Shown here piece by piece: positions 20,804-56,884 of a DNA stretch of 64,000 nucleotides; within the stretch, counting starts at the first letter, position 1; every line of letters starts with the position of its first letter. The translations under genes were made by a program, and so were the position numbers. The notes below the pieces were generated by a model. The model saw only the letters and a program-made list of their open reading frames with translations, had not been told where the DNA came from and ran no database searches. Where the stretch lies: the IMG/VR virus record IMGVR_UViG_3300033141_002573, positions 1-64,000 of that record, one strand, 5' to 3'. Source of the DNA: a virus.

Positions 20804-21744
20804 AGATAATTCACGTCACGGATACCCACCTGGCCCCTGTAGGCACTCGCTACAGACAGGATAACTACGAAGATGCGATTTTTGCAAAGTTGTCACAGGT
20901 AGCGGCAGCCGCTAGGGAACTCGAGGCCCTCGTCATCCACACGGGTGATGTTTTCGACCTTCAAAACCCACAAGGAGTGCCCAGGGAACTCATCTACCGA
21001 TTCTCGGAGTTCATTGCTGAGTCGGGTGTAGGCTGGGTCCTCTTGGCAGGCCAGCATGACTTCCGTGGGAGAGACCCTAGCGGTGGAAGGTACTCCCCCC
21101 TTGGTCTGCTTAAGCACCACAGAAACGTAGTGTTTTCAGATCCCACACTCCCTGTTGCACGGTTTTGCTTCTCGTGGGGTAGCCTCATATGTGTCCAGTA
21201 CCATAACGGAATAATGGGAACATTGCAGCGGCTTGGGGAGGCCATAGACGAGCGTGTGTCTATAATAGCAGTACATGCTATGCTAACGGATATGCCAGTG
21301 CCGTGGGACCACCTACTGCTTGATGATCTCACAGACCTTCCTGCCCAGATGGTTCTTAGTGGTGATTACCATGCAGGATTTGCGTTTACCACACGCGAAG
21401 GACCCGCAGGACCCATTCACTTCTGTAATCCTGGTGGGCTAGGGCGTGTAGACAGAAACGAGGCGGAACGCACCCCCCAGTACGCTATAGTGGACCCCTT
21501 GGAGGGGACAGCTACGTATGTCAAGGTAAACGCCTCCCCAGGTGCGGAGGCGTTCGATCTGATAAAGGCAGAAGATGACGTGGCGAAGACCAACACACGG
21601 TCCGCGTTCGCTGAGAGAATCGGATCGCTGGACATTGGGCTAGAGATGTCGTTTGACCGCCTAGTACAGCAGTTACCGAAGGAGGATGAAAGAATTGTCG
21701 AACGAGCAAGGGAGTTCTATCAGCAGGCCTCCGTACCGTCCTGA
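20800..21744 (+). CDS. Mre11/SbcD-like metallophosphoesterase nuclease
   Basis: The calcineurin-fold metal ligands appear in order: DTH (8-10), GDVFD (49-53), GQHD (84-87, GNHD in most members), VHAML (158-162) and GDYHAGF (188-194, normally GHxH). This identifies an Mre11/SbcD-type nuclease. The Asn-to-Gln and GHxH-to-GDYH changes touch the active site and could alter activity. The C-terminal ~60 residues likely form a Rad50-binding helical region. It lies between the two Rad50 half genes, as expected for a complex. Confidence 0.85.
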   Translation: MKIIHVTDTHLAPVGTRYRQDNYEDAIFAKLSQVAAAARELEALVIHTGDVFDLQNPQGVPRELIYRFSEFIAESGVGWVLLAGQHDFRGRDPSGGRYSPLGLLKHHRNVVFSDPTLPVARFCFSWGSLICVQYHNGIMGTLQRLGEAIDERVSIIAVHAMLTDMPVPWDHLLLDDLTDLPAQMVLSGDYHAGFAFTTREGPAGPIHFCNPGGLGRVDRNEAERTPQYAIVDPLEGTATYVKVNASPGAEAFDLIKAEDDVAKTNTRSAFAERIGSLDIGLEMSFDRLVQQLPKEDERIVERAREFYQQASVPS

Positions 21745-22342
21745 TCTTGTTATGGGAGGGAGGGATAGCATAGGTGCCGAAGTTGCGGCGCTTGGGATAC
21801 GCCCCAGCAGCCCACTATTTGACGCCACAGTAAGTGTTATCGTGGCGCTAGAGGGGGACCATCTGGTAGCGTGGTGCGGGAATGGAGGTAGTGCATCCCA
21901 AGCGAGCCATTTCTCTGCTGAACTGATGGGAAGGTTTCGTTTGAATCGTCCACCCCTGCGCTCAGTTTCACTTGCTGCATGTCCTGTGGTGCTCACAAGC
22001 ATAGCTAATGACTACGGGTACGATTGGGTCTTCGCTAGGCAGGTTCAGGGGCTAATGCGTCAGGGCGATGTGCTGATAGGACTTACGACAAGCGGTACAA
22101 GTCGTAGTGTTGTCAATGCAATGAAGGTAGGGGGTGCAATAGGTGTAACTCGTATAGTATTCACCGGGGATGTTGACCCTACAACTGTGGCTGGCATGGG
22201 ATTTCCCGATGTAGTTGTGCCCGTACCTGGTAATAGTTCCATTGCCCATATACAGGAAGAGCATACTAAAATGTGCCACACTCTTTGTGCTGTTGTTGAG
22301 GATGTGTTGTTTCGACCCAAGAATGAAGGTGAGACCAAATGA
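21695..22342 (+). CDS. gmhA-like: GmhA-like phosphoheptose isomerase (SIS domain)
   Basis: GmhA converts sedoheptulose 7-phosphate to D-glycero-D-manno-heptose 7-phosphate, the first step to nucleotide-activated heptose. The motifs CGNGGSASQASHFSAELMG, LTSIANDYGYDWVFARQV, GLTTSGTSRSVVNAM and IQEEHTKMCHTLC match GmhA closely, including the Glu/His region of the active site. TTG 21695 is preferred because AAGGAGG (21679-21685) directly abuts ATG 21686; both are in frame. The gene overlaps the Mre11-like gene, so a sugar enzyme is expressed with the recombination genes. The kinase-like partner lies in the late cassette (32737-33615). Confidence 0.85.
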   Translation: MSNEQGSSISRPPYRPDLVMGGRDSIGAEVAALGIRPSSPLFDATVSVIVALEGDHLVAWCGNGGSASQASHFSAELMGRFRLNRPPLRSVSLAACPVVLTSIANDYGYDWVFARQVQGLMRQGDVLIGLTTSGTSRSVVNAMKVGGAIGVTRIVFTGDVDPTTVAGMGFPDVVVPVPGNSSIAHIQEEHTKMCHTLCAVVEDVLFRPKNEGETK

Positions 22343-25235: not shown

Positions 25236-26984
25236 TTAATCCTGAAGGTCTTGTCCTACATCATAGGTGTCTGCGTCTGGGACAGCGATGTCCCTGTAGA
25301 CAGTGCGCCCTCCTTGTGGTTTACCTGTCCACGTAGCCTTTACTCGGACCTTCGCTCCTCGGACAATATCTACGTACACGTATCCGTTGGCATCTGTTTC
25401 CCTGGCAGCTACACCGTCGCCAAAAACCACATTGGTGTCACTTGGTCGTGATAGCACATTTACAACATCAAGACTTCCATCCCCAACACCGAGACTCTGG
25501 CCGCCAGCAATTTCCTTGAGGAAAGCGTACACTCGACAGAGAGATGGATCATCTGGCGCGGAAGGCCCAGATGTTCTCACGAGGGTAATAATGTTCGTGC
25601 TATTCCCACTAACCGTGATCTCTGTGTTGCTGCCCTCATAATTCACTGTGCTTGGTGTCACCAGGTGATAGGTGCCGCTATCGAGGTTGAATGTTACACT
25701 CCCACTACTATCAGTACTCCGTGTTGCAATAATTGCACTTTCATCGGAGTCCTTACAGGTGACCTTTAGATTTGCTACTGTGTTCCCTTCTTCATCCTTA
25801 AAGATGCGCGTGACGGTGTAACTACCACTACCAAATATATCGGCCTGTCTTAACGCAGGGTCGATAGCGTACCCAGACCACGCATTGCTGTCGCCGTTGT
25901 CCACCGCTTCTCCGTCAGAACCGCCGCTTGAACAGAATGCAAACGTGTTCTGGTCGGCACCGTTTACTATCTCAAAACCAGCGGTCGTATTGCCTATACT
26001 CGTACAGTTGAGTAACTGATTGAAATCGGCACCTGAGTTGCTTAAGTAAAAACCCCTCACAGCAGCCCCCGCTCCAACCGCCTTGCACCTGTCGATACGG
26101 TTGTAAGGACCCAATACGTCAAAACCAGTTTCTGTGTGTTCGATGCTCCTGGAGTTCTTAATCCAGCCCGCATTCCCATCGATACTGAAGCCTACGGAGC
26201 ACTGACAGGCGCAGCACCCATCCACAATAACGTAGTGTGCCCCAGCCCGAACATCCAGCCCGACACTTGGGCTACTTGGGTGAAATACAGCCCCCTTTAT
26301 CTCACAGGACGATGCGCTAATTGTAAAACAAGCAGACGCACCAGTACCGTCGATGATGGTTCCTGGTTCGCAGATAACTATTACCCCTGAGGTGTCCAAA
26401 TCAAGGTTACTTTCACTGTAGGTTCCTGGGGCTACAACAACATGATCACCCGAAACAGCCGACGATAATGCCTTTGCAATACTAGCAAATGGTACATCAG
26501 GCGCATCCCCATCGTTGCTGTCATCGCCTGTAGCTTTATTAACGTAGTATGTGGTGAAGAATGGGTCCATGTTTACCTGGCGCAACCTCCTACCAGCAGA
26601 CGTGGGGATGTTGTGAGTAGCCCCCGTAAGGCGTTCATCCCACACCCCGTCTGCTATTTCTTCCGCCAGAGTACCACCCACGTTGAGCTTGTCGAGGTAA
26701 CCAGCACGCGCTGGCGTGTAGTCTGCCTCCGTATAGAAGACCTGCACCTGGTCTTCAAGGTTGTCCGAAGCAATCTTCACCGCACCGTAATCACAGTCAG
26801 CCTCCGTTGGCGTTAGGTCCAGGGTAACAAGACCACTGCCTACAACTGTGGGCGTATTGGTGGCCCCAGCAAAGGCTCCACCATCTTTGCTTATCGTTGC
26901 TACAGGATTCGTAGGGTTTGTGGGTACACCACCGTTGTAGCAGACGATTTCGATGGTCTGGGCAATACCTTTTGGGAAGACCAC
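25236..26984 (-). CDS. Tail protein with beta-helix and Ig/transthyretin-like domains, 582 aa
   Basis: The first ~120 residues resemble a baseplate or tail attachment domain. Residues 140-370 (TYYVNKATGDDSNDGD, repeated short strands, TIIDGTGASACFTI) match a right-handed parallel beta-helix of the DUF1565/pectate-lyase type. The C-terminal part has two small beta domains (TVTRIFKDEEGNTVANLKVT; CRVYAFLKEIAGG) like carboxypeptidase-regulatory or tail-fibre beta sandwiches. Such proteins serve as receptor-binding or polysaccharide-degrading tail spikes. It uses a GTG start. Confidence 0.75.
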   Translation of the reverse strand: MVFPKGIAQTIEIVCYNGGVPTNPTNPVATISKDGGAFAGATNTPTVVGSGLVTLDLTPTEADCDYGAVKIASDNLEDQVQVFYTEADYTPARAGYLDKLNVGGTLAEEIADGVWDERLTGATHNIPTSAGRRLRQVNMDPFFTTYYVNKATGDDSNDGDAPDVPFASIAKALSSAVSGDHVVVAPGTYSESNLDLDTSGVIVICEPGTIIDGTGASACFTISASSCEIKGAVFHPSSPSVGLDVRAGAHYVIVDGCCACQCSVGFSIDGNAGWIKNSRSIEHTETGFDVLGPYNRIDRCKAVGAGAAVRGFYLSNSGADFNQLLNCTSIGNTTAGFEIVNGADQNTFAFCSSGGSDGEAVDNGDSNAWSGYAIDPALRQADIFGSGSYTVTRIFKDEEGNTVANLKVTCKDSDESAIIATRSTDSSGSVTFNLDSGTYHLVTPSTVNYEGSNTEITVSGNSTNIITLVRTSGPSAPDDPSLCRVYAFLKEIAGGQSLGVGDGSLDVVNVLSRPSDTNVVFGDGVAARETDANGYVYVDIVRGAKVRVKATWTGKPQGGRTVYRDIAVPDADTYDVGQDLQD

Positions 26985-27041: not shown

Positions 27042-27404
27042 TTATGTAGCAGACGGTGTGGCAGATGGTACAACGGTTACCTTTCCTCCGATGGGGAAAT
27101 CATCCAGTCTGTTTCCATCCCCATCCTCTGCCAGTTTCACGTGCATGTCCCACACGTAGTCCCCCTCATCCAAATCAACATCACCAAGTCGGATTCTAAC
27201 CTTGTTGTTGTCAGGTGTGTCAACAATTGTAAATGTTGCACTGACTACGGTGCTGCCCCATGCAGGTCGGATCTGCGCCTTAATGTCAGCACCTGTTAGG
27301 TCAACTGGGTTTCCCTCTGAGTCCACCAGTGTGGATGTTGTGTAGTCGATGTCCCCACCAATACCCACAACGAAGTTAACGATACGACCCACATGCTCAG
27401 ACAC
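27042..27404 (-). CDS. Small tail/baseplate accessory protein, 120 aa
   Basis: This beta-rich protein (VDLTGADIKAQIRPAWGSTV; GDYVWDMHVKLAEDG) resembles the small Ig-like N-terminal domain of phage baseplate upper proteins. GTG 27404 lies 6 bases after AAAGGAGGAGG. It lies between two adhesin-like genes. Confidence 0.6.
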   Translation of the reverse strand: MSEHVGRIVNFVVGIGGDIDYTTSTLVDSEGNPVDLTGADIKAQIRPAWGSTVVSATFTIVDTPDNNKVRIRLGDVDLDEGDYVWDMHVKLAEDGDGNRLDDFPIGGKVTVVPSATPSAT

Positions 27405-28629
27405 CGATCCTCCTCCTTTCTCCGTCACCCGATGCAGTTATTCCTGTACGGGTTTGACCCGTACAGATGATTCTATTCTGTGTTCCATCCCCTGTAAGGT
27501 GTAGTGGTGGTATGGTGGCGTGCAACTCCTCTAAGTTCCCCACCGTCCAGAAGCCGTCGTTGTCGGACTGGCAGTTGAACATAGTGGAAATCCTGTCGGC
27601 TGACCACGCCACCTTCCATTGATGGGTCTCGTCTTGATGCCCGTAAAGGCCAGCAACATTTTTCCACCGTCCATGACCTGCCGGAGACATATGGTAGCTG
27701 GTGCTCGGAGTAACATCACCAGTTGGGGACAACGACCTACCGAGCGGCACACCGTCAACGTATATCAGTACCTCGGTGCCGTCGTACACGAACCCAAACT
27801 GGTGCCAAAGACCGTCACCCAGGTCGGCATAGTACGCGTCCGTCGTGAAGTCGCCCGCCGTAGTTGCCAGATGCACCCCGACTCCATAAGGGTCGTCTCT
27901 GCCACTCACCCACATGTCCCAACCCCCGTGGCCTCCTTCACGCCAGTTGCCAAACAGCCATTGCCAGCCATTGTGGTCGTCAACACGTTGGTCAACTCTG
28001 GCCCACGTAAATGCGCTCAGCGCAGCACTCATTGCGCCATAGTCCAAAGGCCATCGGCTACCGTAGATGTAGTCTCCGTCGTCCCTATTACGCTCCACTC
28101 CACAGCCTACCTGGCCTGTTTGGTCAACCTTGTCTATGTAGTCATTGCCGTGGTCGTGGAGTGCGCACCAGTCCTTGTAGACCTGTGGTGTGCCCGTTCC
28201 TGGGGCACTCTCCTCCAGCGGCCAGTAACCAATACATCCGTCGCTTATCGGCACCACGCCTTCTCGGTTCTCAAACGGCCCACCAGTGCATCCCCTATAG
28301 AGTCGGTAGGTAGTGGGCGCACTGGCCGACAGCGCGGGCAGGCCCAGGCCCAGCACGAGCTTGCGGCTCCCAGAAGTCTGCGAGAATTGCTTCAGTCCCC
28401 ATGCCACCTCGGTGCTGTCGTCGGCTGTGAATACCCGCAGGTCGCTCAGGTCTGCTGCCAGCCCGTTAATGAAGCTCTGCGCTCCGCCCTCCCAGTTGGT
28501 CCCCAGGGCTTCGTCAATCACCAGGTCGGCGGCGAACACGGACGAGCCGTCGTCCGGCATATCCGCAGGGACTTTCTCTGGATTACTGTGGATAGTTAGG
28601 CGGTGTGTAGCACCAGATGGTTCAGCCAA
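27397..28629 (-). CDS. DUF2341/LamG-type lectin-fold tail adhesin, 410 aa
   Basis: Residues 25-110 resemble the DUF2341 domain that commonly precedes LamG domains. Residues about 135-360 (GYWPLEES; WHQFGFVYDGTEVLIYVDGV; WSADRISTMFN) match a concanavalin-A/LamG fold that binds glycans. This fits a receptor-binding or head/tail decoration protein. The TTG start has AGGGGAGG upstream and lies directly downstream of the promoter at 28664-28692. Confidence 0.8.
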   Translation of the reverse strand: MAEPSGATHRLTIHSNPEKVPADMPDDGSSVFAADLVIDEALGTNWEGGAQSFINGLAADLSDLRVFTADDSTEVAWGLKQFSQTSGSRKLVLGLGLPALSASAPTTYRLYRGCTGGPFENREGVVPISDGCIGYWPLEESAPGTGTPQVYKDWCALHDHGNDYIDKVDQTGQVGCGVERNRDDGDYIYGSRWPLDYGAMSAALSAFTWARVDQRVDDHNGWQWLFGNWREGGHGGWDMWVSGRDDPYGVGVHLATTAGDFTTDAYYADLGDGLWHQFGFVYDGTEVLIYVDGVPLGRSLSPTGDVTPSTSYHMSPAGHGRWKNVAGLYGHQDETHQWKVAWSADRISTMFNCQSDNDGFWTVGNLEELHATIPPLHLTGDGTQNRIICTGQTRTGITASGDGERRRIGV

Positions 28630-28714: not shown

Positions 28715-30454
28715 TTAGGGTTCTGCTCCCGTTTTGGTCATCACGTAGTACGGTTCAACAAGGCCACGGCTGGCGTGTTTCGCACCCATGAAGTGTTCAG
28801 CACAGTTAGGATCAATCGTGCGCATAACAGCGCGTACATCTCTGAGAGGCTCCAGTCTGACAATTTCCCCGTGCGGACCACGGTTATGTATGCGTTCACC
28901 TTCAGCTACCGCTCGCTGGTGAACAACAAGCCAGCGCCTTGTCACGCGCCATAGTTCCTGCAAGGCTGGTTCACTCTCAGGAAGATGATGCAGCACGTTC
29001 GTACAGAAAACCAAGTCGAAACTCCCATTGTCAAATGGTAAACGTGCCCCATCCATGCTATCGAGCGGCAGGCGAGCTCGATAAATTGTAGCACCTGGCG
29101 CATACTCACGTGCAAGCCTAACCATCTCCTGGGAGTTGTCACAGCCTGTGTAGACCATCCCCCGTACTTCCATAAAGTAACGATAGTAGTTGGCGTTGCC
29201 GCAGCCTACGTCGAGTACACTTTGCCCCGGTTCACCAGGTAACCAGTCCACGTTTCTCCATTGCTCTATCCGTGTTTCATGTCGGCTCCATGGCTTGTTT
29301 GCTATGTGTTCCGCCACGGACTTACCAGCATAGTCGCCGAAGGTACAGGTCGTATCCCAGATTTGCCCGTCCGCCCTTAGTTGTGCATCATCGTCATTGT
29401 GCGTCACGCCCAACTCTGCTACCTGATCGTTAATCTCACTATGATCTCCCATCTTTTCAGCCCTCCCGGCTAAACGTCTATAGGTATTAGCGTACGTCGC
29501 GGCCATCCTGTCATTGTCCCACGTAGCGATTGCACGGTCTGCTATCTGCCGCCGCTTACCTCTGAGATTGTTGTCTGTGAGTGCCCTCTGCACTGCATCA
29601 GCCACCGCTTCCGGGTTTGGTGCGGTCATCACGCCTAGTTTCCCGTTGGCTGCCAACTGTGGCCCGTAGTGGCTATTGGGGACCACAGGAATTAGGCCCG
29701 CAGTTAGTGCCTCAGCCACACCAGTTCCCGAACCCTCAGGCCAGGGGGCACAAATCACGTCCCCCTCAGCAATAAGTGCCATGGCCTTCGGATGGGGCAC
29801 TGTACCGAGTGCCTCGGCGATGCCAATCAGTCCACGGCGGTGAAGTTCTTTGTGTATCTGGATGTGGCCTGAGGGGGAGCCGCCGATAATGCGCAGTGAG
29901 AACTTCTCCCCCCGCTTGTGCAGTATTTCCATTGCCTCCAGAAACAGAAGAGGGTTACGGTCAGGGTCGAGCCTACCAAGCCAGACCACTAACCCCTCCC
30001 GCCTCTCCTCCGCCCATGGCACAGGGTCAACACCGAACAGGTTTATAGGTGCGTCGCCGGGGACCGCAGGTGACACACGGAAGGTTACGTCTGCCCATTC
30101 ACTCCCATTTGCTTCTATCCCTTCGAGACTGCCTGACTTTGTGACCGAAGGTATACCCAACTCCTTTGCAACCTTTGCTGCGTACTTGGTGTTTGCCTGC
30201 ACTACGTCAGGTTCCAAGGTAATCATCGCTGCCCGCAGTCCGGCAATGTGTTGCTCAATAGGCTTCCCCTTGGGAACCTGGACGACCTCCCCCCATTGTT
30301 CCATCTCCGCGAGACCACTCGGTTTCGCATTAATGTAGGTGCAGCAACACTCAAACTCCTCAGGTGGCAACCTCCGAATGACCGCCAGGGCATTGACCAT
30401 CCCTCCACCCCACCAGAGGTTCGGCACATTGAAAAGTATCTTGATTCGGTTCAA
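28715..30454 (-). CDS. GT4-type glycosyltransferase fused to a SAM methyltransferase, 579 aa
   Basis: Residues 1-335 form a GT-B glycosyltransferase: N-lobe NVPNLWWGGGMVNALAVIRR, C-lobe VVWLGRLDPDRNPLLF and the nucleotide-sugar site PWPEGSGTGVAEAL with the conserved Glu. Residues 400-575 form a class I methyltransferase: SVLDVGCGNANYYRYF (motif I), FDLVFCTNVLHHLPE (post-II). It could add a sugar and methylate it. It overlaps the next upstream gene by 4 bases (ATGA) and is a close paralog of that protein's C-terminal GT4 module. Confidence 0.85.
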   Translation of the reverse strand: MNRIKILFNVPNLWWGGGMVNALAVIRRLPPEEFECCCTYINAKPSGLAEMEQWGEVVQVPKGKPIEQHIAGLRAAMITLEPDVVQANTKYAAKVAKELGIPSVTKSGSLEGIEANGSEWADVTFRVSPAVPGDAPINLFGVDPVPWAEERREGLVVWLGRLDPDRNPLLFLEAMEILHKRGEKFSLRIIGGSPSGHIQIHKELHRRGLIGIAEALGTVPHPKAMALIAEGDVICAPWPEGSGTGVAEALTAGLIPVVPNSHYGPQLAANGKLGVMTAPNPEAVADAVQRALTDNNLRGKRRQIADRAIATWDNDRMAATYANTYRRLAGRAEKMGDHSEINDQVAELGVTHNDDDAQLRADGQIWDTTCTFGDYAGKSVAEHIANKPWSRHETRIEQWRNVDWLPGEPGQSVLDVGCGNANYYRYFMEVRGMVYTGCDNSQEMVRLAREYAPGATIYRARLPLDSMDGARLPFDNGSFDLVFCTNVLHHLPESEPALQELWRVTRRWLVVHQRAVAEGERIHNRGPHGEIVRLEPLRDVRAVMRTIDPNCAEHFMGAKHASRGLVEPYYVMTKTGAEP

Positions 30455-32721
30455 CGTGTAAGCTCCCTATAGACCTTAGCGTACTCGGCGCTGAAACGTT
30501 TTGCATCGTACCGTTGTCCCGCCCACTCCTTCATCGTGGTGCGTTTACCACGCAGTTCGGTGTTGTCGAGCGCCTGTGAGAGGCCATCTGCAATCTTCTC
30601 AGGTTCACTCCCAACGGTGACACCGTACTCCCCCACCAGTCCCGGTCCGAAGCCACCTGTTGAGACAACAGGTATAGCTCCCCCACGCATCCCCTCGGCG
30701 ACACCGAGGCCAAATCCCTCCGGCCACGGCGCGGTTACCACATCAGCCTCAGCTACCAGTTCAAGCGCCTTGGTGTGGGGCACAAGTCCGCTTAGTTCGA
30801 CTCGCTCCTTAAGACCATCCACCCAGGGAAACTGCTTGGGGTCGAAGCTGCCATCCATGTTGGCACCGATGATGCGTACTCTGAAGTCCTGCCGTCGCCT
30901 CCAGAGTACATTAAGGGCGTTGAAGAAGACTTGTGGGTTCCTGTCGTGGTCGAGGCGTCCAAGGTAGGTGATAAGGTGGTCCACTCGGTCCCGAACAGGA
31001 GGCGCATCCACACCATTGAGTATCATAGGTTGGTCTCCCGGAATAGCGGGGGAAACACGGAACACACAATCAGCGAACTCAGCGCCATTTGCCTTCGCAC
31101 CGAGCATACTGTGGCCTGTTGTGACACAGAGGATACCCATATCGTGGGCCACACAGGCCATCTCAACCGTATTCGCCTGGACCACATCCGGCTTGGTCTC
31201 TGACAGCACCTCACGAATTGCTTCAGGCAATTCCTCCTCTGTATTTGGCGTAATCCGGTGTACAACGCCATACTCACGGAGGGCTTCATCAGCGCCTTGC
31301 CTTACGCGACGTATTAAGAAATGTACGTCGAATTCGTTGCGCGGTAGGTACTTCACCAGGTAATTCGTCCAGTTGTGTAAACCTCCCCACCAGGCATTTG
31401 GAACGAAGAAGAGGATTCGAGGCACATTCCTTTTGGGCGAAGGGGCCTTCACACGCCGAATGCCCGCTTTTGTCCATTTGCGAGCAAAGGCCGCATCCGC
31501 CCGGCGCATCCCGTCGGTGTCGCCTACTCGCCGCGTGAGACCCTGCGGCATATCACCATGTAGTGGGCCTCCCAGGTGTCGCAACTGTACAGTGCCGTCA
31601 ATCCAGAGTGTGTATCCTGCCTCTTTAATCCGCCAGAGGAGGTCGCGATCACTCTGACCCTGCAAACTGCGGAACGGTTCGGGGTGTAGTTGACCAGGTT
31701 CCTCCTCGGCATTGCGTACAGCCTCCATGCGGAAGAGGTTGTTGCTACCCGTAATGTCGAATGGCTTCGCGGGTTGGCCGCGCAAGCTCGGCCAGTATAT
31801 GTCTGTCCAAGGTGCAATTGCACCGATGCGGGCATCCGTGTGCATCCGTTGCACAAGCGGTCCTAGCCAACCAGGCGGGGTAAGCATATCGTTGTCTATC
31901 CACGCAAAGTATTTGCTTGTTGTGTGGTCATACGCTAACTGCCGCCCACCAGGGCAGCCAAGGTTCTTGTCGGACTCTAGTACCAGGCAACGGTCGTCAC
32001 CAAGCATCTGCCGCACCGAATAGAAAAACTTCCCAACCGGCTCTGTGCTGCCGTTGTCCACCAAGATCAGCCTGTATGGTGCCCAAGTATTGGCAATAAC
32101 CTGTGCCACGCAGGAACGGGTGACCTCGAGCTCGTTGTGAGCAAGTATAACAATGTCTGTAACAGGCCACATGACCTTATGGTAGCGCACCAGGTAGTTC
32201 TCTACTGCTTGGTTCCCATCCGCTTCCATGTGGATACACGGGAGGCCTGCCCTTGCAGCGAACCGTGCGCAGCGATCACTGTCCGTATGGACAATGTGAG
32301 GCCGGAAGTCGAGAACAACCCTGAGGAATGCCCACCATTCATCATCTTGAGGGAGAAATCTAACTCCTCCATGTTTACACATTTCTGTAGCGTCAGTTGC
32401 TGGATTGCCTTCCTCAACAATGAAGTACCACTCAACAGTATTGGAGGGCATACCTTTGGCTAGATAACTCGCAAATGTTTCTTGGTCTCCTCCACGGGCC
32501 ACACGTGTGCAAAATAGAACACGAATAGGTTCACCATTAGCAGGGGGATAAGCGGGGCCTGGGTAACCATACCACGTGTCAGGGGGTGTGGCCGGACGGG
32601 CATTCCGAGGACTCTGAGGTGGCTCCTGGGGCACAATGCTGATTAACCTCCGTTTCCCCTCCAGCCTCTCGGTTTTGATTACCCTACCTCGCTCGTCCAC
32701 TACCTCGTGAACAACAGCCAT
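30451..32721 (-). CDS. Multidomain glycosyltransferase GT4-half / GT2 / GT4, 756 aa
   Basis: After a Pro-rich start (1-60), residues 65-180 resemble a GT4 N-lobe (IRVLFCTRVARGGDQETFAS). Residues 185-420 form a GT-A/GT2 transferase: DIVILAHNELEVTRSCVAQV, LVDNGS, the metal site WIDNDM and SDRDLLWR. Residues 435-750 are a complete GT4: VPNAWWGGLHNWTNYLVKYL, ITYLGRLDHDRNPQVF, PWPEGFGLGVAEGM. At least two sugar-transfer activities are implied. ATG 32721 is preferred over GTG 32730 given AGGAGG 11 bases upstream. Confidence 0.85.
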   Translation of the reverse strand: MAVVHEVVDERGRVIKTERLEGKRRLISIVPQEPPQSPRNARPATPPDTWYGYPGPAYPPANGEPIRVLFCTRVARGGDQETFASYLAKGMPSNTVEWYFIVEEGNPATDATEMCKHGGVRFLPQDDEWWAFLRVVLDFRPHIVHTDSDRCARFAARAGLPCIHMEADGNQAVENYLVRYHKVMWPVTDIVILAHNELEVTRSCVAQVIANTWAPYRLILVDNGSTEPVGKFFYSVRQMLGDDRCLVLESDKNLGCPGGRQLAYDHTTSKYFAWIDNDMLTPPGWLGPLVQRMHTDARIGAIAPWTDIYWPSLRGQPAKPFDITGSNNLFRMEAVRNAEEEPGQLHPEPFRSLQGQSDRDLLWRIKEAGYTLWIDGTVQLRHLGGPLHGDMPQGLTRRVGDTDGMRRADAAFARKWTKAGIRRVKAPSPKRNVPRILFFVPNAWWGGLHNWTNYLVKYLPRNEFDVHFLIRRVRQGADEALREYGVVHRITPNTEEELPEAIREVLSETKPDVVQANTVEMACVAHDMGILCVTTGHSMLGAKANGAEFADCVFRVSPAIPGDQPMILNGVDAPPVRDRVDHLITYLGRLDHDRNPQVFFNALNVLWRRRQDFRVRIIGANMDGSFDPKQFPWVDGLKERVELSGLVPHTKALELVAEADVVTAPWPEGFGLGVAEGMRGGAIPVVSTGGFGPGLVGEYGVTVGSEPEKIADGLSQALDNTELRGKRTTMKEWAGQRYDAKRFSAEYAKVYRELTR

Positions 32722-32736
32722 GGAAACCACACCCTC

Positions 32737-33615
32737 CTACATACGCGGTGATCGAACATAGGATGAAGCAAACTGTAAGGCATCACTTACAGCCTTACGG
32801 CTGTAACCGCAAGTAGCCCATGCCTTTGCCAGTCCAACAAGAAATGCGTCACCTGCTCCAATAACCTGTGGCTTATCGACTCTGGGGGGTTCCACATGCC
32901 ACATACCGTCCATATCGGAGGCCTCAATATGCTTGTCTGCATTTGTTACAACAGCCAGTGTAACATTGAGAGACGAACGTATCTCTGATGCCAAGGACTT
33001 TCCATCTAGGCCGAGCACATTTGCTATTCCCGCAGCTTCAGACCAATTACACACAAGCGCATCTACCCCCGAAAACATACCTACTATCTTTGACGGTTTT
33101 GTGTTAACTATTACAGGACAGTCAACTTGGTGTAACGTTTTCATCAGCGGCTCAATTGTGTGTTCACTGACTACACCCTTATTGTAGTCGCTAACCACGA
33201 AAATGTCAAGGTCACCAGAAATCATTAATGCTGGTGACAACACGTTGTTACCCAAAAACGTTTCCTCCACATCAGTTCTTGAAACACAGTCAGTTTCCGA
33301 CGTGAAAGACCTAAACTTCAATGTTGTAACAGAAAGTTCACGAGAAAGGAAATATGAGATATGCTCGCGTCTGCACACATCCTCTATTAGCGACCCCCAC
33401 ACATCATCCTTTCCAATAGCACCCCACAACGTCACATCGAAACCTTCCCGTGCTGCAAGGGCTGCAACGTTACCAGCACCACCAAGCCGGTATGTCAGAT
33501 TGTTACCCCGCAGAATAAGTATCTCGTCATTCTCTGGGGAATAACGCTCGAACCTTCCATACACTGATACGTCAAGCATGACATCTCCGACTACACCCAT
33601 TCTAACCTTATCCAT
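32737..33615 (-). CDS. hldE-like (kinase domain): PfkB-family sugar kinase, HldE N-domain-like
   Basis: HldE's N-domain phosphorylates D-glycero-D-manno-heptose 7-phosphate at C1. The motifs GDVMLDVSVYGRFERYSPE, LGGAGNVAALAA, VSDYNKGVV and GAGDAFLVGLA (with the catalytic Asp) follow the RfaE/HldE domain I pattern rather than ribokinase or fructokinase. The 292-residue length matches domain I alone; the C-terminal cytidylyltransferase-like domain is absent. ATG 33615 has GAAGGAGAG upstream. With the GmhA-like gene in the early operon, it supplies two consecutive heptose steps. Confidence 0.8.
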   Translation of the reverse strand: MDKVRMGVVGDVMLDVSVYGRFERYSPENDEILILRGNNLTYRLGGAGNVAALAAREGFDVTLWGAIGKDDVWGSLIEDVCRREHISYFLSRELSVTTLKFRSFTSETDCVSRTDVEETFLGNNVLSPALMISGDLDIFVVSDYNKGVVSEHTIEPLMKTLHQVDCPVIVNTKPSKIVGMFSGVDALVCNWSEAAGIANVLGLDGKSLASEIRSSLNVTLAVVTNADKHIEASDMDGMWHVEPPRVDKPQVIGAGDAFLVGLAKAWATCGYSRKAVSDALQFASSYVRSPRM

Positions 33616-35368
33616 TACTCTCCTTCTCCATAGTAGTGATGAGTGGTGTGAAGTAAGGTATACGCCCTCCCTCAAATCTTTCCCTAAGATGATGTGGTAA
33701 GGCATCAGCAAGTGTGGTGCTACCCTCACGGGTTGTCCAGTCACACCCCCCGACAAACCTCAAGCCACATTGGGCCGCCATGTCCTCCAGTGATCTTCTT
33801 CCAACAGTAGTAAGTTTCAACTCAGGTATGTGTTCCTCACCACCTGGGCTGTATTCTACTGTCATTACCAGACGCCCACCGGGCCTAATAGCTTTAGCGA
33901 ACGCCTCCATAAAGGCTCTTCTGTTAGGAACATGTTCCAGAACAGAGATACTTACACCTATATCAAACGATTCGGGTGTAAGTTGCGCACGTTGAATATC
34001 TGAACATATGTAACACGGACCATCCGGCCACGTGGTGACCAGACCATTTGGCGGATCGTTGACAATAGTTTTGGATGGGCTTTCGAACCACCACGCTTCA
34101 GTAAATCCAATAGGATCAACACAGGTCACATTTTCACCAAAGGTTCTACAGAGAGACAGCGCAAGAAGATCGTTGTTCGCTCCTACAACAAGAATCTTAG
34201 CGGTATCTATGTCGATGTTTGTATTGCTCATTTCTACAAGTGCCGCAGGATATTCCCAATCCCGAAAGAAACCTTTACCCTTGAGCATCCACTCCCCCCT
34301 TAGGGTGCTGTATAGTGGGGAGTTCATCTCCTTCTTACTGAGACACCGTGTCCTCGCGGGGTTGCCTCCATACCAAGTTCTCACTGACGTGTAGTGAAGT
34401 GGGGCAGAAAGTTCCCTGTATACAGATGAGTACCTGGCGGCAATGTTGCGCCAGGTAAATGGAAGAGACATAGTTCTACTGCTCGCAATCTGAGGCTTCG
34501 ACCCCCACCAACCACCGTCGGCTATGTCATTGAGGGCCGAAACCGCACCCTTAGGATCATTAAACCTGTAGAATATTCCAGTGCTCCCATCCACAACCAT
34601 GTCCTTCGCCATACCTGTAGGTGTGGTAACAACAGGGAGACCTGATGCCATTGCCTCAAGGAGGCTTGCGGGTCCTCCCTCCGACCTACTTGTAATAAGA
34701 TAGACATCACAACTACGGTAGACTTGAGGGTAATCCTCGTATGCCAAGTCCATTACTGTACAAACGAGTCCATTAGATTCTGCAACAGATGTTTCAACCT
34801 CCCATGTGTCATCACCACCAGCAAGAAGAACCACCTCAAATCTTTCTGGGTCCAGTAGCTCTATTATCTCACAGAATGTAGCTGCTCCTTTGTTTTCCAT
34901 GGAGAATGGCGTATCCCGCGTACCATTTGGAAGGTATCTCTTGCCGACACGTAGGACACGACACCTTTTATGTTTGACCTCTAGTGGGGCTGGGTAAAAT
35001 CTTTCTATGTCTACACCATGAGGGATGTACCTACACTTATCACAGTCAACACCCGCTTGGGCAAGCTCCCCAATGTCGCTTGTGTTCAAAACAGCAATAA
35101 TGTCAGCATCTCTGAACACATCCATGGTGGCATTACCATACATCAGGTTTCCGTTACGTATGCCCTGACCATGATGGCTTACAACACAGGGGTGAGGAAT
35201 TGAAAGTCCACGCTCTGCTGCCCAGTTAGGTCTAAGGATATGGTAAACGTCTGCGTCTACAGGAAGTTCACTGCGCACAAAGTCCATGTTGGAATGGTTT
35301 GCTATCTGGGATGCTATATCTCCCAGAACCCAACCTTGGTGCCCGTAGAACACAAAGTTTACTAACAC
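33608..35368 (-). CDS. GT4 glycosyltransferase fused to a methyltransferase, 586 aa
   Basis: Residues 1-320 form a GT4 enzyme: SHHGQGIRNGNLMYGN, RYIPHGVDIERFYPAP, LITSRSEGGPASLLEAMASG and LPVVTT. Residues 375-570 form a methyltransferase: ILVVGANNDLLALSL (glycine-rich loop), FDIGVSISVLEHVPNRRAF and IRPGGRLVMTVEYS. It is less similar to the other GT4 modules of the cassette, so it is probably an independent acquisition. GTG 35368 lies 6 bases after AGGAGG; a longer ATG version at 35398 overlaps the previous gene. Confidence 0.85.
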   Translation of the reverse strand: MLVNFVFYGHQGWVLGDIASQIANHSNMDFVRSELPVDADVYHILRPNWAAERGLSIPHPCVVSHHGQGIRNGNLMYGNATMDVFRDADIIAVLNTSDIGELAQAGVDCDKCRYIPHGVDIERFYPAPLEVKHKRCRVLRVGKRYLPNGTRDTPFSMENKGAATFCEIIELLDPERFEVVLLAGGDDTWEVETSVAESNGLVCTVMDLAYEDYPQVYRSCDVYLITSRSEGGPASLLEAMASGLPVVTTPTGMAKDMVVDGSTGIFYRFNDPKGAVSALNDIADGGWWGSKPQIASSRTMSLPFTWRNIAARYSSVYRELSAPLHYTSVRTWYGGNPARTRCLSKKEMNSPLYSTLRGEWMLKGKGFFRDWEYPAALVEMSNTNIDIDTAKILVVGANNDLLALSLCRTFGENVTCVDPIGFTEAWWFESPSKTIVNDPPNGLVTTWPDGPCYICSDIQRAQLTPESFDIGVSISVLEHVPNRRAFMEAFAKAIRPGGRLVMTVEYSPGGEEHIPELKLTTVGRRSLEDMAAQCGLRFVGGCDWTTREGSTTLADALPHHLRERFEGGRIPYFTPLITTMEKESNG

Positions 35369-35378
35369 AACCTGCCTC

Positions 35379-36575
35379 CTATGCGGCGTAAGCCTCATTA
35401 TAGGCTATAGCAATACGTGCAGATAACCTTGGCTCTGACCTGTCGGCTAGATAGATAAACACTATCCAATACAGAAACCTCAAAAGTCTCTCCCAATCAT
35501 AACCCTCAATCCGAGGGTTAGCCTCCAAAGACCTGAGGCCATTCCGCAACCCCTTAGGTGACCTAACGTCGATTGTCCAACCTTCCCCCGAATAAAAGGA
35601 CTCCCCCAGCGTCAGAACTCTTCTTCCGAGAGCGAGAGATTCGATACCTACAGTGCTGTTTATCGTCACGACACCATCGCTATTCCCAATAAGGTCGTGG
35701 ATGTTAGCAGATGTAACAATGGCATAGCTATTGGGGTCGGCATCGCACATGTAGGACTCTACGGGTGTCCTGTCACGTGGGTGACGCTTGAACACAGGAA
35801 ACCATTCAGGTGTGGCCTCATGGACAACAAGTTCTACTAGATCCTTAGGTCGGTTTACTACCGTTTCCGGCCACCACATCGTACCGTCCGATGGTGTCTG
35901 TAAAGGAACAAACAACATAGGCTTACCATGGGTATTCGGCAAAGGTTCCCATCCCTGGTCATACTTACTAGTACGTCTGCGTGACCATTGCTGGATGAAT
36001 GCAGTAATACTTAACATTGCACGGTCCGAAAGTGGGTGGTCCCTTCGTACCATCCACCCACTTTTTAGCCATGATCTACCCTGGAAGTACAGCCCAATTG
36101 GGTCAATGATGTGCATGTGATACCATGTTCTTGGGCTACAGAAAAAGGCCCCCTCGAAGTACAACACAGGAATATTGAGACGTTTAGCTATAATGGATGC
36201 CGCACGGCATTGGGGTGTAGTATTGCTCCAGATACAAAGAAGTGCTGGACCATCCTTTCTTATCATCTGCTCCAAATAACCAATGGTGGACCACACCCGA
36301 TGGTCAACCTGCCCAACCTTGATGTATCGTACACCGTCACCACCATTACCGCGCCACTTAGCGAATGCAACTATGTCGTAAATGTCATAATCACCCGATG
36401 GCATCGGGCCGCGAGGAAAGGCATTCGCCCAGTCGGTGCCCAGACTGTGCCATTTCGAATCTATCCCCCATTTCTGGAATATCGGAATCCACTGCGACGG
36501 CCAGTCGCGCTTGATAGAATCCACGCCAAGAAACAGCACATGCTGGCTGGTAGGGATCATAGTTTTTCTATTCAT
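35379..36575 (-). CDS. Capsule-synthesis (KpsS/Kdo-transferase-like) protein, 398 aa
   Basis: The C-terminal half has SDGVVTINSTVGIESLALGR, characteristic of capsule polysaccharide biosynthesis proteins of the KpsS/KpsC/LipB type, which transfer beta-Kdo. WFPVFKRHPRDR upstream of it fits the same fold. The N-terminal half carries YFEGAFF and a GT-B-like first lobe. Its presence in a virus suggests that Kdo or a related acid sugar is part of the modification, or that host capsule is remodelled. It overlaps both neighbouring genes. Confidence 0.7.
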   Translation of the reverse strand: MNRKTMIPTSQHVLFLGVDSIKRDWPSQWIPIFQKWGIDSKWHSLGTDWANAFPRGPMPSGDYDIYDIVAFAKWRGNGGDGVRYIKVGQVDHRVWSTIGYLEQMIRKDGPALLCIWSNTTPQCRAASIIAKRLNIPVLYFEGAFFCSPRTWYHMHIIDPIGLYFQGRSWLKSGWMVRRDHPLSDRAMLSITAFIQQWSRRRTSKYDQGWEPLPNTHGKPMLFVPLQTPSDGTMWWPETVVNRPKDLVELVVHEATPEWFPVFKRHPRDRTPVESYMCDADPNSYAIVTSANIHDLIGNSDGVVTINSTVGIESLALGRRVLTLGESFYSGEGWTIDVRSPKGLRNGLRSLEANPRIEGYDWERLLRFLYWIVFIYLADRSEPRLSARIAIAYNEAYAA

Positions 36576-37770
36576 TTTCGTTAGGATTACTACGCGGAGC
36601 CATAAGCATCAGAGGCCATGCCATCCGCTTTGCGTCCATTGCCTTCATACATTCACGTCCGCATCTACCTGTAAACGTAGGGTCATCTCCACAAGGACAA
36701 CATTCTATCTCACTTGCAATCATAGCACATGAGTTCTTATACCACTTCATTCGTAGTTCAGGAGCAATGACAGAAAAGACCACTCCAATGAATGGTCTAC
36801 CATTCTTCTGAACACCAGCAGCTAAGTGGTACAGCCCGCTGTCCGTAGAGAGTAGAGCATTACATAGAGAAAGAATTGCAGCTACCTGACGGATCTTCAA
36901 CCCTATTGCAAGGTGGACCCCTTTTAAGCCCCCAAAGAGTGGCTCAGCGGCATCCCCGGAGTCGAATACAATACAGTCCCATCCCTCAGACACTCTGTCC
37001 CGTATGAAGTCTGAAACATTATCTGGCTCCAACGTCCTACGTGGGTCAGTCGCAAACGGAGCAATGCCTATCCTATTATCCCCTATACCTCTGTCCTCCA
37101 TCCACCTCTTTGCCCAGGCTACTTCATCGTTACGGAGGAAATAGTCCACAGAACCATCCTCGATGTTCAGCCCAAATGCCTTTCCAAAAAGACTAGTCCT
37201 GTCCACATCGTTACGGAGCGGGCTTCGTTCAACGTAGTGGTTAACATCAAGTTCAACATCAAATGCCCACTCAACGTAATCCTCCATAGGCGCGGCCTTA
37301 TGAACATAGGGGTTCCCATCGAAAATGGGGACAAGGTGTCTTGCAACATAGAGGTATATGTCGAGATGATCATACTCCTTCTTGAGGGCACGTATGGAGG
37401 CGGTTAACATGAGCAGATCGCCCAGCCCTCCACTACGAAGAATGGCAACAGAGCGAGCCATCCTAAGATCCTGCTCGCTCATTATCTTTGTAGAGAACGG
37501 TTTGCGGTATTGCCGAAGCAACTCTACAGAACGCCCAACACCATCAACCTGAGATACATGGATAACAGGACGAGAAAGACGCTTTGGTTGCAACGCAGCA
37601 ACAGTATCACTTGTACGGACATGGGCACGCTGATCTCTAATACCACTATGCCCTGTGTCAGCAGGTCTTGGGAGTCTACTAGGTTTCTCAGGGAGAACAG
37701 CACTTGGTATTTGTTGTTTGTTGTCTCCTACATCCATCTGTGGCATTGCCTCCTTGCTGGTTTGGTTCAT
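36568..37770 (-). CDS. GT9 heptosyltransferase-like protein, 400 aa
   Basis: The GT9 hallmarks are RSGGLGDLLMLTASIRALKK (residues ~111-130) and LSTDSGLYHLAAGV, which binds the ADP-sugar in WaaC/WaaF-type enzymes. An N-terminal extension of about 100 residues, and a C-terminal Cys cluster (ECCPCGDD, RCGRECM) that may bind zinc, are extras. ATG 37770 overlaps the stop of the adjacent tail gene (TGATG), so the first sugar gene is translationally coupled to a structural gene. Confidence 0.82.
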   Translation of the reverse strand: MNQTSKEAMPQMDVGDNKQQIPSAVLPEKPSRLPRPADTGHSGIRDQRAHVRTSDTVAALQPKRLSRPVIHVSQVDGVGRSVELLRQYRKPFSTKIMSEQDLRMARSVAILRSGGLGDLLMLTASIRALKKEYDHLDIYLYVARHLVPIFDGNPYVHKAAPMEDYVEWAFDVELDVNHYVERSPLRNDVDRTSLFGKAFGLNIEDGSVDYFLRNDEVAWAKRWMEDRGIGDNRIGIAPFATDPRRTLEPDNVSDFIRDRVSEGWDCIVFDSGDAAEPLFGGLKGVHLAIGLKIRQVAAILSLCNALLSTDSGLYHLAAGVQKNGRPFIGVVFSVIAPELRMKWYKNSCAMIASEIECCPCGDDPTFTGRCGRECMKAMDAKRMAWPLMLMAPRSNPNENE

Positions 37771-38747
37771 CACAGATATACCCACTTGCGACCCATACGA
37801 TAACCGCTGTAACTTACCGTGCCTGCGTAGTTACCATCATTCGTCACACGCACCTTAATGCTTTCAGCATCATGTGTCTCAAGGATAGAGTAACTGAAAA
37901 GCTCGCTGTCTAACGTCAGCGATATTGGTCCGAAGAGGATAAGTTTTGTGTGGGGAATAGTAATATCAACAAACGCCCCAGACTCAAGACCACTAATAGT
38001 GCCGCTGAACCTTACGGTATGAACCGCACCAGCACCTGTCCACAAGTTTCGGTCGTGTCCATATGGAGCATTGTTGGCAGAGGTAACGTTTCCTGCGGCG
38101 TCTAACACCATGCTGGCTACAAGAATATCTCCCTCTGCGGGCGAAGATGATGTACTCGCAACCCATTGGATTATCCCATCTCTGGTAGTCCTACCCATTG
38201 TGCGCCCGAAAACATAGTTGGTGGTCCCATTAGTAAGACCCTGTATGTAAAAGAAACTTACAACAAACTTGTCTCCAGACGTAATGGCACTTCCAAGAGG
38301 AGCAGACCATTCTATCCTACCCTGAGTTTGATCATACGCCGTTACCTCCCGCACAGCGCCGTTGTTTGCCCCAGATGTAATGATAACCCATGCCGATACC
38401 CAAAAGTCATCCTCCTCTGACAGCGAGGATGATGTTAGATACGTTGTCCCTCCTCCATTTGCAGTCCCAGAAACCTCAAGCCCCGATGACATAGAAAACC
38501 CACGACCGCGTATAACACCAACAATGGGTTCACCCGCATCGGGACGAGCAATACGGCCCGTAGATGTATCTATGACACACTGATCTGGATCTCGGTTGAT
38601 TAGCCCATCCTCAACCAACTTACCCAAAAGCACGTTACCAATTGTGTGCTCGAGGTAGTGGGCAACCGTGTTATGGTCTGATGGGAGTACAGGGTCGGCT
38701 TCTACCCTCTCCCACGGGATACCAAGTATAGGACTTGTATCTGACAT
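37770..38747 (-). CDS. Minor tail/structural protein, 325 aa
   Basis: The beta-rich protein contains repeated Gly/Ser/Thr segments (GGGTTYLTSSSLSEEDDFWV; TNGTTNYVFGRTMG) typical of tail-fibre shafts. It ends in a compact beta domain. It overlaps the small gene before it and the GT9 gene after it. No enzymatic motif is visible. Confidence 0.65.
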   Translation of the reverse strand: MSDTSPILGIPWERVEADPVLPSDHNTVAHYLEHTIGNVLLGKLVEDGLINRDPDQCVIDTSTGRIARPDAGEPIVGVIRGRGFSMSSGLEVSGTANGGGTTYLTSSSLSEEDDFWVSAWVIITSGANNGAVREVTAYDQTQGRIEWSAPLGSAITSGDKFVVSFFYIQGLTNGTTNYVFGRTMGRTTRDGIIQWVASTSSSPAEGDILVASMVLDAAGNVTSANNAPYGHDRNLWTGAGAVHTVRFSGTISGLESGAFVDITIPHTKLILFGPISLTLDSELFSYSILETHDAESIKVRVTNDGNYAGTVSYSGYRMGRKWVYL

Positions 38748-51899: not shown

Positions 51900-51938
51900 C
51901 CTTATCGCCTCACTCAGACAGACTTGTACGGTGGCTTA

Positions 51939-54080: not shown

Positions 54081-55298
54081 CTATCTCACCCCCAGGGCAA
54101 TATCAAGCACCTCTTCCCTGTCTATCATCTCTAGACACGGAGGATGCTCAATGTCGCACCTCTTTATTTGCCAATCGTTACATGGTGAGCATTTTGCATT
54201 AGCATTACCTGACACCGTAGTACACCTTGGGAAACCCCTCACACGAAGATCTGGATCCACAGGTCCAAACAACCCAACACAAGGGACGCCCAAAGCATTA
54301 GCGGCGTGAAGAATACCCGAATCCCCCGCTATTACAACATCACACATTTCCAAAACAGCAAACATCTCAGCAACACTTGTTTTCCCCGACAGATTTACAC
54401 ACCCATCTATGTCCCATAAACCACGGGACCTACCGCCCAGCAGAATTGGAACATAACCAGCCCGGACAACCCCAGCAGCCAACTTCCGTACCCACGATGG
54501 CGATGGCAAACGCCTCGGAATGCTCCCCTCTACCTGGATACCAACAAATGGCCCATCTCTACCGACTAAAGACCTCGCAGCATTCCGATCCACATCGTCA
54601 ACCTCGTAATCAAACTCGTAAGAATCAACCCCACCAAGCCCAAAGCCATGTGCAAAGAGGTCACTACGATGGATATGGTCTCTTCCAGGTGCCGTTTCCA
54701 CCCACCAACCCAAGTCGACAACAAGTCCAAATGGGCCGTTATCATACGCATCAAACCCACCGTAGACAGATGAAATGTAAGGCTTCCCCTTCAGAAGTCT
54801 TGTATTCTGACGCGAGGTGCTATACGAGATGTCAGCAAACGGAAACCTTGCTTTCAATGTACGCACCGCAGGACACGACAGCAACACATCACCCAGACCC
54901 CCACTCCGTGTTATCAGCACACGGAGCGGCTCCCCAACCGAGAGCACTTCAGCGGCACTCACCCTATCGAATCCGGTGGCCCGTTTTAATACCCTATGGA
55001 GCGCACCATCGGCCACTACAACAGAACCCGGCGGGAAAGTCCGTATAGCAGGCTGAAGCCAAGGTAGCGAAAGCCTTACAGACTTGTTGCTGGAGCATCG
55101 ATAATAATAGTACCCGAGGCTGCGCTCCTCACAAACGATGGGGCCGGGTTGATTCAGAAGATACTCCAAATCTCCATCGTTTGAAACCTCCGTCCAAACA
55201 CCGTCACCCAACATGTAGTCCTGACTAAGGCGACCTTGCCCCATAACCCGATAGCTCTTCGGCCCATGAACAGTTACACAAATGCTATGTCGGCTCAT
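54081..55298 (-). CDS. GT9 heptosyltransferase-like enzyme inside the head module, 405 aa
   Basis: GT9 motifs RSGGLGDVLLSCPAVRTLK and AGDSGILHAANALGVPCVG are intact. Residues 1-85 form an extension (including EVSNDGDLEYLLNQPGPIVC) that resembles a segment of the neighbouring 138-residue protein (CEVDDADADIILNQVRLFD). The C-terminus has CSPCND and RCDIEHPPC, like the Cys cluster of the GT9 enzyme at 36568. ATG 55298 overlaps the previous gene by 14 bases, so it is translated with head genes. It may glycosylate capsid or connector proteins. Confidence 0.82.
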   Translation of the reverse strand: MSRHSICVTVHGPKSYRVMGQGRLSQDYMLGDGVWTEVSNDGDLEYLLNQPGPIVCEERSLGYYYYRCSSNKSVRLSLPWLQPAIRTFPPGSVVVADGALHRVLKRATGFDRVSAAEVLSVGEPLRVLITRSGGLGDVLLSCPAVRTLKARFPFADISYSTSRQNTRLLKGKPYISSVYGGFDAYDNGPFGLVVDLGWWVETAPGRDHIHRSDLFAHGFGLGGVDSYEFDYEVDDVDRNAARSLVGRDGPFVGIQVEGSIPRRLPSPSWVRKLAAGVVRAGYVPILLGGRSRGLWDIDGCVNLSGKTSVAEMFAVLEMCDVVIAGDSGILHAANALGVPCVGLFGPVDPDLRVRGFPRCTTVSGNANAKCSPCNDWQIKRCDIEHPPCLEMIDREEVLDIALGVR

Positions 55299-55701
55299 CG
55301 GAAGCAGGCTGGGCAAGCCCGTCCAACACGGCCTTCACGTCGGACGGTAGTTCCTCGTCCCCGTTACCGCCTGAACCAGCACCAGAACCCAGCAACTTAG
55401 TAACCAGTGCCTTAAGCTCAGCTATCTGCTGGGCTTGAGATTCAACCTGCACCCGAACACGGTCCTCGGTGTCGAGGTCCTCAGGCGGCGGCTCCTTGCT
55501 AAACGGGTTGTAAGGCATGTTATTCCTGTCAAACAGACGAACCTGATTGAGAATTATATCGGCATCCGCATCATCCACCTCACAATACCCATTCCGTTCC
55601 CACCGATAGACAATAGGGTAACCCTCAGGACTCGTCCTGCCTGTGTTCCAACTCCAAGTACGCGGGCATCCGCGCTCATTTAGAATCATCCATATCTTCA
55701 C
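55285..55701 (-). CDS. Small head-associated protein, 138 aa
   Basis: The N-terminal ~65 residues look like a compact domain (PIVYRWERNGYCEVDDADAD). The middle is a Pro/Glu stretch and the end a coiled coil (VESQAQQIAELKALVTKLLG) with Gly/Ser linker. It directly follows the capsid gene and precedes the GT9 gene. A decoration or linker protein is plausible. GTG start with AAGGAGGG 9 bases upstream. Confidence 0.55.
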   Translation of the reverse strand: MKIWMILNERGCPRTWSWNTGRTSPEGYPIVYRWERNGYCEVDDADADIILNQVRLFDRNNMPYNPFSKEPPPEDLDTEDRVRVQVESQAQQIAELKALVTKLLGSGAGSGGNGDEELPSDVKAVLDGLAQPASDEPT

Positions 55702-56844: not shown

Positions 56845-56884
56845 CAACATTCACCTCAACGAAGAAGACAGCCACAACGGTTCG

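What the first reader, a model, noticed from the sequence alone, without database searches (positions are those of the whole stretch)
28715..37770. Six-gene glycan cassette embedded in the tail operon
GT9, KpsS-like, GT4+methyltransferase, HldE-type kinase, GT4/GT2/GT4 and GT4+methyltransferase genes are packed with overlaps between tail genes, and the first is coupled to a tail gene by TGATG. At least six transferase modules and two methyltransferases imply a multi-sugar, methylated glycan. Late co-expression with tail genes points to decoration of virion proteins. Glycosylated virions are known from some actinobacteriophages, but a heptose/Kdo-flavoured cassette of this form is, to my knowledge, not described.
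Basis: partly seen in the sequence, partly recalled or inferred. Interest (0 to 1): 0.8.

Follow-up and report, generated by a model that had tools for sequence, protein, structure and literature searches.

The report
Phage sugar-coating genes beside tail genes
An uncultured bacterial virus carries, among the genes for its particle, a set of sugar-attaching enzymes plus two early steps for making the sugar heptose, which probably decorate the virus particle itself, although changing the host's surface cannot yet be excluded.

Summary
Six genes (28715-37770, minus strand) carry GT9, KpsS/KpsC-like, GT4+methyltransferase, PfkB heptose-kinase-like, GT2+GT4 and GT4+methyltransferase domains. They lie between a conserved tail gene and fibre-like genes, joined to the tail gene by TGATG. 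Tools added four things. (1) A second GT9 gene (54081-55316) sits between the major capsid protein and the head-tail adaptor, conserved there in two related contigs, down to 36% identity. (2) A phosphoheptose isomerase, GmhA (21686-22342), lies in the other operon, so the phage encodes heptose steps 1 and 2; GmhB, the nucleotidyltransferase and an epimerase were not found in the 108.5-kb contig. (3) In one relative the same tail gene is followed 18 nt later by another ORF, so the cassette is accessory there. (4) No membrane protein in the cassette and no thymidylate-synthase-type hydroxymethylase in the contig. Best reading: cytoplasmic glycosylation of virion proteins using heptose, with a conserved capsid-linked GT9 and an optional tail-linked cassette (0.55). 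Main rival: alteration of host surface glycan (0.25). "Not described" is too strong: pelagimyophages carry glycosyltransferases and rfaE with tail-fibre genes, and Caulobacter phage Cr30 has gmhA plus a heptose kinase. New variant of a known kind.

The parts
36568..37770 (-). GT9 (heptosyltransferase family) gene, cassette gene 1; ATG overlaps the stop of the tail gene (TGATG)
   Evidence: PF01075 E 6.6e-9 over cut-off; GLGD and DSG motifs; ATG at 37770
35379..36575 (-). KpsS/KpsC-like glycosyltransferase, cassette gene 2
   Evidence: PF05159 E 9e-15; KpsC structure 6mgd E 3.5e-11; KRHP motif
33608..35398 (-). GT4 glycosyltransferase fused to a weak methyltransferase domain, cassette gene 3
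   Evidence: Glyco_trans_1_4 5e-19, Methyltransf_11 1.4e-8
32737..33615 (-). PfkB kinase closest to HldE N-terminal domain (heptose-7-phosphate kinase), cassette gene 4
   Evidence: TIGR02198 E 3.2e-32 (below its cut-off), ribokinase only 2e-10; PDB 4e84 E 3e-10; GDVMLD and GAGD
30451..32730 (-). GT2 + GT4 two-domain glycosyltransferase, cassette gene 5
   Evidence: PF00535 3e-21, PF13692 1.9e-13
28715..30454 (-). GT4 + methyltransferase, cassette gene 6; its GT4 is a paralogue (41-42%) of that in gene 5
   Evidence: PF08241 2.6e-19, PF00534 2.4e-16
54081..55316 (-). Second GT9 gene between major capsid protein and head-tail adaptor, with a ~125-aa N-terminal extension; conserved in L005 and L009
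   Evidence: PF01075 2.9e-15; synteny; alignment A4
21686..22342 (+). GmhA-like phosphoheptose isomerase in the opposite (replication-side) operon
   Evidence: SIS_2 7e-17; NF010546 2e-41; PDB 5i01 1.6e-32 with HFxAE and IQExH kept
37770..38747 (-). Conserved tail-region gene immediately upstream of the cassette (49% in L011)
   Evidence: fold search of a low-confidence model gives weak tail-fibre/baseplate-type hits
27397..28629 (-). Laminin-G/ConA-like, fibre-like gene downstream of the cassette
   Evidence: PF13385 E 1.8e-4, below cut-off
25236..26984 (-). Beta-helix, spike- or fibre-like gene
   Evidence: DUF1565 2.2e-6, Beta_helix 1.4e-4, phrog_32409 tail fibre 7e-4
55807..56850 (-). Major capsid protein candidate, 63% in L005, 36% in L009
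   Evidence: phrog_1623 8.7e-38

Best explanation
This is a phage-encoded, cytoplasmic virion-glycosylation system with a heptose donor. GmhA and the HldE-type kinase would turn sedoheptulose-7-phosphate into D,D-heptose-1,7-bisphosphate; host phosphatase and nucleotidyltransferase would finish the NDP-heptose. A lineage-conserved GT9 made with the capsid gene would put a sugar on a head protein, while the optional six-gene cassette, made with the tail genes, would build a longer, partly methylated oligosaccharide on tail or fibre proteins. Shown: gene content, order, overlaps, conservation of the capsid-linked GT9, absence of the cassette from the same junction in one relative. Inferred: late co-expression, heptose as donor, virion proteins as acceptors, host completion of the donor pathway.
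For: GT9 beside the capsid gene in three contigs, down to 36% capsid identity. Cassette coupled to a tail gene. GmhA and kinase both present. None of the cassette proteins has a predicted membrane helix (best 19-residue hydropathy 1.51) and no flippase or Gtr-like family is in the cassette. Bacterial GT9 relatives sit beside HAD hydrolase or rfaE2 genes, consistent with an ADP-heptose donor. Precedents: phage glycosyltransferases that glycosylate capsid and tail tube in mycobacteriophages (Freeman 2023, as cited in PMC12619734 and PMC12363180), and TibC, a heptosyltransferase that acts on a protein (PMC4358343).
Against: No protein chemistry exists and no acceptor is identified. The enzyme families are those of LPS and capsule synthesis. 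Three of five donor-pathway functions are missing from the contig, so the host must supply them (the epimerase may not be needed), and the host is unknown. A GT9 next to a capsid gene could be a hitch-hiker. Cassette absence rests on one relative. The two structure models are low confidence (mean pLDDT 49 and 44).
Confidence: 0.55

Rival explanations
1. The enzymes remodel host LPS, O-chain or capsule during infection, to block co-infecting phages or stop progeny re-adsorbing to debris. The genes are near tail-fibre genes because host-recognition genes cluster and exchange together.
For: All families are LPS/capsule families. The methyltransferase domain of 28715-30454 weakly resembles the WbdD O-antigen methyltransferase (E 2e-4). 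Pelagimyophages with glycosyltransferases and rfaE in the tail-fibre cluster were read this way (PMC7029224), and jumbo phage clusters likewise (PMC7824862). The cassette is accessory at a junction with a fibre-like gene.
Against: No membrane protein, flippase, polymerase or Gtr-like protein is in the cassette. Tail-operon position suggests late expression, poor timing for exclusion. It does not explain a GT9 kept beside the capsid gene.
Confidence: 0.25
2. The transferases glycosylate phage DNA bases.
For: Phage glycosyltransferases are known to modify DNA, and the genome is rich in N4/N6-type DNA methyltransferase genes.
Against: No thymidylate-synthase-family hydroxymethylase in the contig; no hypermodification family in the Pfam-scanned proteins (the right-hand part of the contig was only partly scanned). 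The families are GT9/GT4/KpsS-type rather than DNA glucosyltransferases.
Confidence: 0.04
3. The cassette is a recently acquired moron or mosaic insert with no fixed role for this phage.
For: Absent at the same junction in G003; two composition classes inside the cassette (GC3 0.42-0.51 against 0.57); one methyltransferase domain weak or degenerate.
Against: Six long intact frames with overlapping junctions and kept motifs; a matching GmhA elsewhere in the genome.
Confidence: 0.11

Closest known systems
Virion glycosylation of mycobacteriophages Che8, Corndog, Myrna (Freeman et al. 2023, read only through PMC12619734 and PMC12363180)
   Same: Phage-encoded transferases act on capsid and tail tube proteins.
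   Different: No heptose genes described there in the passages read; here GT9 plus GmhA/kinase and a six-gene cassette, in an uncultured phage with almost no detectable relatives among cultured phages.
Glycosyltransferase and rfaE genes in the host recognition cluster of pelagimyophages (PMC7029224)
   Same: Glycosyltransferases and rfaE placed with tail-fibre genes in a variable region.
   Different: Mostly GT8 there, read as host O-chain modification; here GT9/GT4/GT2/KpsS-like with overlaps to a tail gene and a separate capsid-linked GT9.
Caulobacter phage Cr30 gmhA - heptose kinase - glycosyltransferase - epimerase cluster (KF301602)
   Same: Phage gmhA with heptose-7-phosphate kinase and a glycosyltransferase.
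   Different: Cr30 kinase is a GHMP kinase, as in the GDP-heptose route; here it is a PfkB/HldE-like kinase, and the genes are split between two operons.
TibC/BAHT protein heptosyltransferases (PMC4358343)
   Same: GT9-like GT-B fold, N-terminal extension and four-cysteine cluster; acts on protein.
   Different: No BAHT model matched in NCBIfam; a similar cysteine cluster also occurs in ordinary bacterial GT9; the phage N-terminal extension is not shown to be a beta-barrel.

Membership tests
GT9 glycosyltransferases | PF01075 above gathering score; GxGD and DSG motifs | tested here: met
   Both phage genes over cut-off; GLGD and DSG in all four phage GT9s
GT9 heptosyltransferases | NDP-heptose as donor | not testable with these tools
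   LPS heptosyltransferase models are the best NCBIfam hits but all below curated cut-offs
HldE / RfaE | Kinase domain TIGR02198 above curated score | tested here: not met
   111.9 bits against a cut-off of 345, though best family by far
HldE / RfaE | C-terminal nucleotidyltransferase domain | tested here: not met
   No TIGR02199 match in the contig
GmhA | Isomerase rather than DiaA: catalytic Glu and His positions kept | tested here: met
   HFSAEL and IQEEH aligned to GmhA structures; the role of these Glu/His residues is from memory
GmhA | Score above the curated equivalog cut-off | tested here: not met
   NF010546 141.7 bits against 276; TIGR00441 130.5 against 209
Phage virion glycosylation systems | Transferase genes placed with head or tail genes | tested here: met
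Phage virion glycosylation systems | Sugar on virion proteins | not testable with these tools
   Needs virions and mass spectrometry
Gtr-type O-antigen conversion | Membrane proteins (GtrA flippase, GtrB, Gtr) | tested here: not met
   No such Pfam family and no predicted membrane helix in the cassette
Phage DNA hypermodification | Thymidylate-synthase-family hydroxymethylase | tested here: not met
   PF00303 no match
BAHT (TibC-like) protein heptosyltransferases | BAHT profile match | tested here: not met
   No BAHT model among NCBIfam hits at E up to 10; TibC only a secondary fold hit of a low-confidence model
LPS-type gene clusters in pelagimyophages | rfaE-like gene and glycosyltransferases beside tail-fibre genes | tested here: met
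   and PMC7029224; fibre identity of the neighbours rests on weak matches

The most novel reading that the evidence does not exclude
The capsid-linked GT9 is a phage protein heptosyltransferase, fixed in a lineage of uncultured phages, that uses NDP-heptose partly made by phage enzymes to coat the head, while a swappable cassette builds a methylated oligosaccharide on the tail or fibre: a two-tier heptose-based virion coat.
Probability: 0.3. Interest if true: 0.75.

Novelty: new variant of a known kind. Interest (0 to 1): 0.5.

Why it matters
If true, phages outside the actinobacteriophages coat their particles with sugars by dedicated enzymes, with heptose as a building block and separate head-linked and tail-linked modules. 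It would also give a concrete test for the many glycosyltransferase and rfaE genes found near phage tail genes, whose role (host surface or virion) is now mostly assumed.

Tried and rejected
Single-protein scans of IMG/VR with the cassette GT9 and a tail protein found nothing. An alignment of the two paralogous GT4 domains found no relatives in viral or genome collections, so the source of the cassette and the host stay unknown. A capsid scan of bacterial genomes found no prophage. I considered TibC-type (BAHT) membership because the fold search returned TibC, the phage GT9s have an N-terminal extension and a CxxC...C...C cluster, and a beta-helix protein lies nearby. I rejected it because no BAHT model is matched and an ordinary Caballeronia GT9 has the same cluster, with a similar one in Streptomyces and Nonomuraea. 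Two AlphaFold models were poor; their fold matches are used only as weak support. The plus-strand ORF 51438-52784 is spurious: two tail genes lie on the minus strand there. Further hits of the tail-protein scan (L016-L028) share only one short domain and no window transferase. Sigma-70-like sites are not more frequent than in shuffled sequence.

Full report
Setting. The window is bases 1-64000 of a 108.5-kb uncultivated virus contig. Replication-type genes run on the plus strand up to about 24 kb (PolA fused to a uracil-DNA glycosylase domain, primase, SbcD-like). From about 24 kb the structural genes run on the minus strand: terminase 60666-62648, portal 58780-60669, capsid 55807-56850, adaptor 53318-54079, tail tube 50961-51899, tape measure 45619-49140, tail proteins to 37770, then the cassette, then fibre-like genes. 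Nucleotide search of 50,697 phage records finds nothing, and the terminase has one distant hit.

The cassette. One search gives the domains: GT9; PF05159 (KpsS/KpsC type, best structure KpsC 6mgd); GT4 plus weak methyltransferase; PfkB kinase; GT2+GT4; GT4+methyltransferase. The kinase is closest to the HldE N-terminal domain (TIGR02198 E 3e-32 against ribokinase 2e-10) and keeps GDVMLD and GAGD, but scores far below the curated cut-off and lacks the second HldE domain. Genes overlap or nearly abut, and the first is joined to the tail gene by TGATG at 37770. The GT4 domains of genes 5 and 6 are paralogues (41-42%). Base composition splits the cassette: GC3 0.42-0.51 for the four genes next to the tail gene, 0.57 for genes 5 and 6, next to the fibre-like gene at 0.64. 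It may have been assembled in two steps (inference).

Beyond the cited interval. First, a second GT9 gene lies between the capsid and adaptor genes. The same order, capsid - small gene - GT9 - adaptor, occurs in L005 (GT9 47%, capsid 63%) and L009 (GT9 36%, capsid 36%). L009 was found by searching with the GT9 itself, so it is not an unbiased sample; L005 was found by terminase. In L009 the shared neighbourhood from terminase to tail shows that it is a true relative. A more distant contig with a 27% capsid match (L006) has no GT9 in its 106 kb. Second, GmhA is encoded at 21686-22342. With the kinase this gives steps 1 and 2 of NDP-heptose synthesis; the HldE nucleotidyltransferase, an NAD-dependent epimerase and GmhB give no match in the contig. 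If the contig is incomplete these could be missing from the record only.

Accessory status. In G003 (contig of L009) the protein homologous to 37770-38747 (49%) is followed 18 nt later by an ORF of at least 487 aa with no family match, placed like a fibre gene. The cassette is absent from that junction. This is one comparison, and the contig ends inside that ORF, so a cassette further on cannot be excluded.

Mechanism. The best reading is cytoplasmic glycosylation of virion proteins. The arguments are position (capsid-linked and tail-coupled), lack of any membrane component, lack of a hydroxymethylase for DNA glycosylation, and the heptose genes. The LPS-family nature of the enzymes and published readings of similar phage clusters as host O-chain modifiers (PMC7029224; PMC7824862) keep the host-surface rival at 0.25. 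Late expression is inferred from gene order, not shown. A sigma-70-like site with extended -10 lies in the 85-bp gap before the fibre-like gene (28692-28664), but such sites are not enriched over shuffles.

Known relatives. Virion glycosylation by phage enzymes is established in mycobacteriophages (Freeman 2023, via PMC12619734 and PMC12363180; the paper itself is not held). Phage gmhA plus heptose kinase exists in Cr30, with a GHMP-type kinase instead of PfkB. Cyanophage LPS clusters have long been known (PMC3037559). What is new here is the combination: a conserved capsid-linked GT9, a tail-coupled cassette and a GmhA plus PfkB-type heptose kinase in one phage. Hence a new variant of a known kind, interest 0.5.

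Limits. No host, no virions, two low-confidence structure models, one relative for the cassette junction, two for the capsid-linked GT9. Donor sugar and acceptor are inferred.

Noticed in passing
54081-55316, residues 1-125: The capsid-linked GT9s carry a ~125-aa N-terminal extension with no Pfam or PHROG match, conserved in L005 and L009 and predicted mostly beta with low confidence; possibly a targeting domain.
   Followed up: partly
12537-15134: Family A DNA polymerase fused at its N-terminus to a uracil-DNA glycosylase domain.
   Followed up: no
28692-28664: Sigma-70-like site TTGACT-17-TATACT with TG before the second hexamer, in the 85-bp gap between the cassette and the fibre-like gene; fibre genes may have their own promoter.
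   Followed up: partly
L003:17110-17910 (contig 99110-99910): PAPS-reductase-family gene on the right part of the contig.
   Followed up: no
1259-2611; contig 65008-66030, 96674-98395, 102490-103281, 103563-104321: Several N4/N6-type DNA methyltransferase-like genes (first by Pfam; others by reading the translations).
   Followed up: no
3535-4323: RlaP-family RNA-repair nucleotidyltransferase-like gene.
   Followed up: no
contig 67313-67816 (L002:4313-4816): ORF with long proline-leucine-glutamine repeats, probably a simple DNA repeat rather than a gene.
   Followed up: no
19796-20803: Radical SAM protein of unknown subtype just upstream of SbcD-like and GmhA genes.
   Followed up: no
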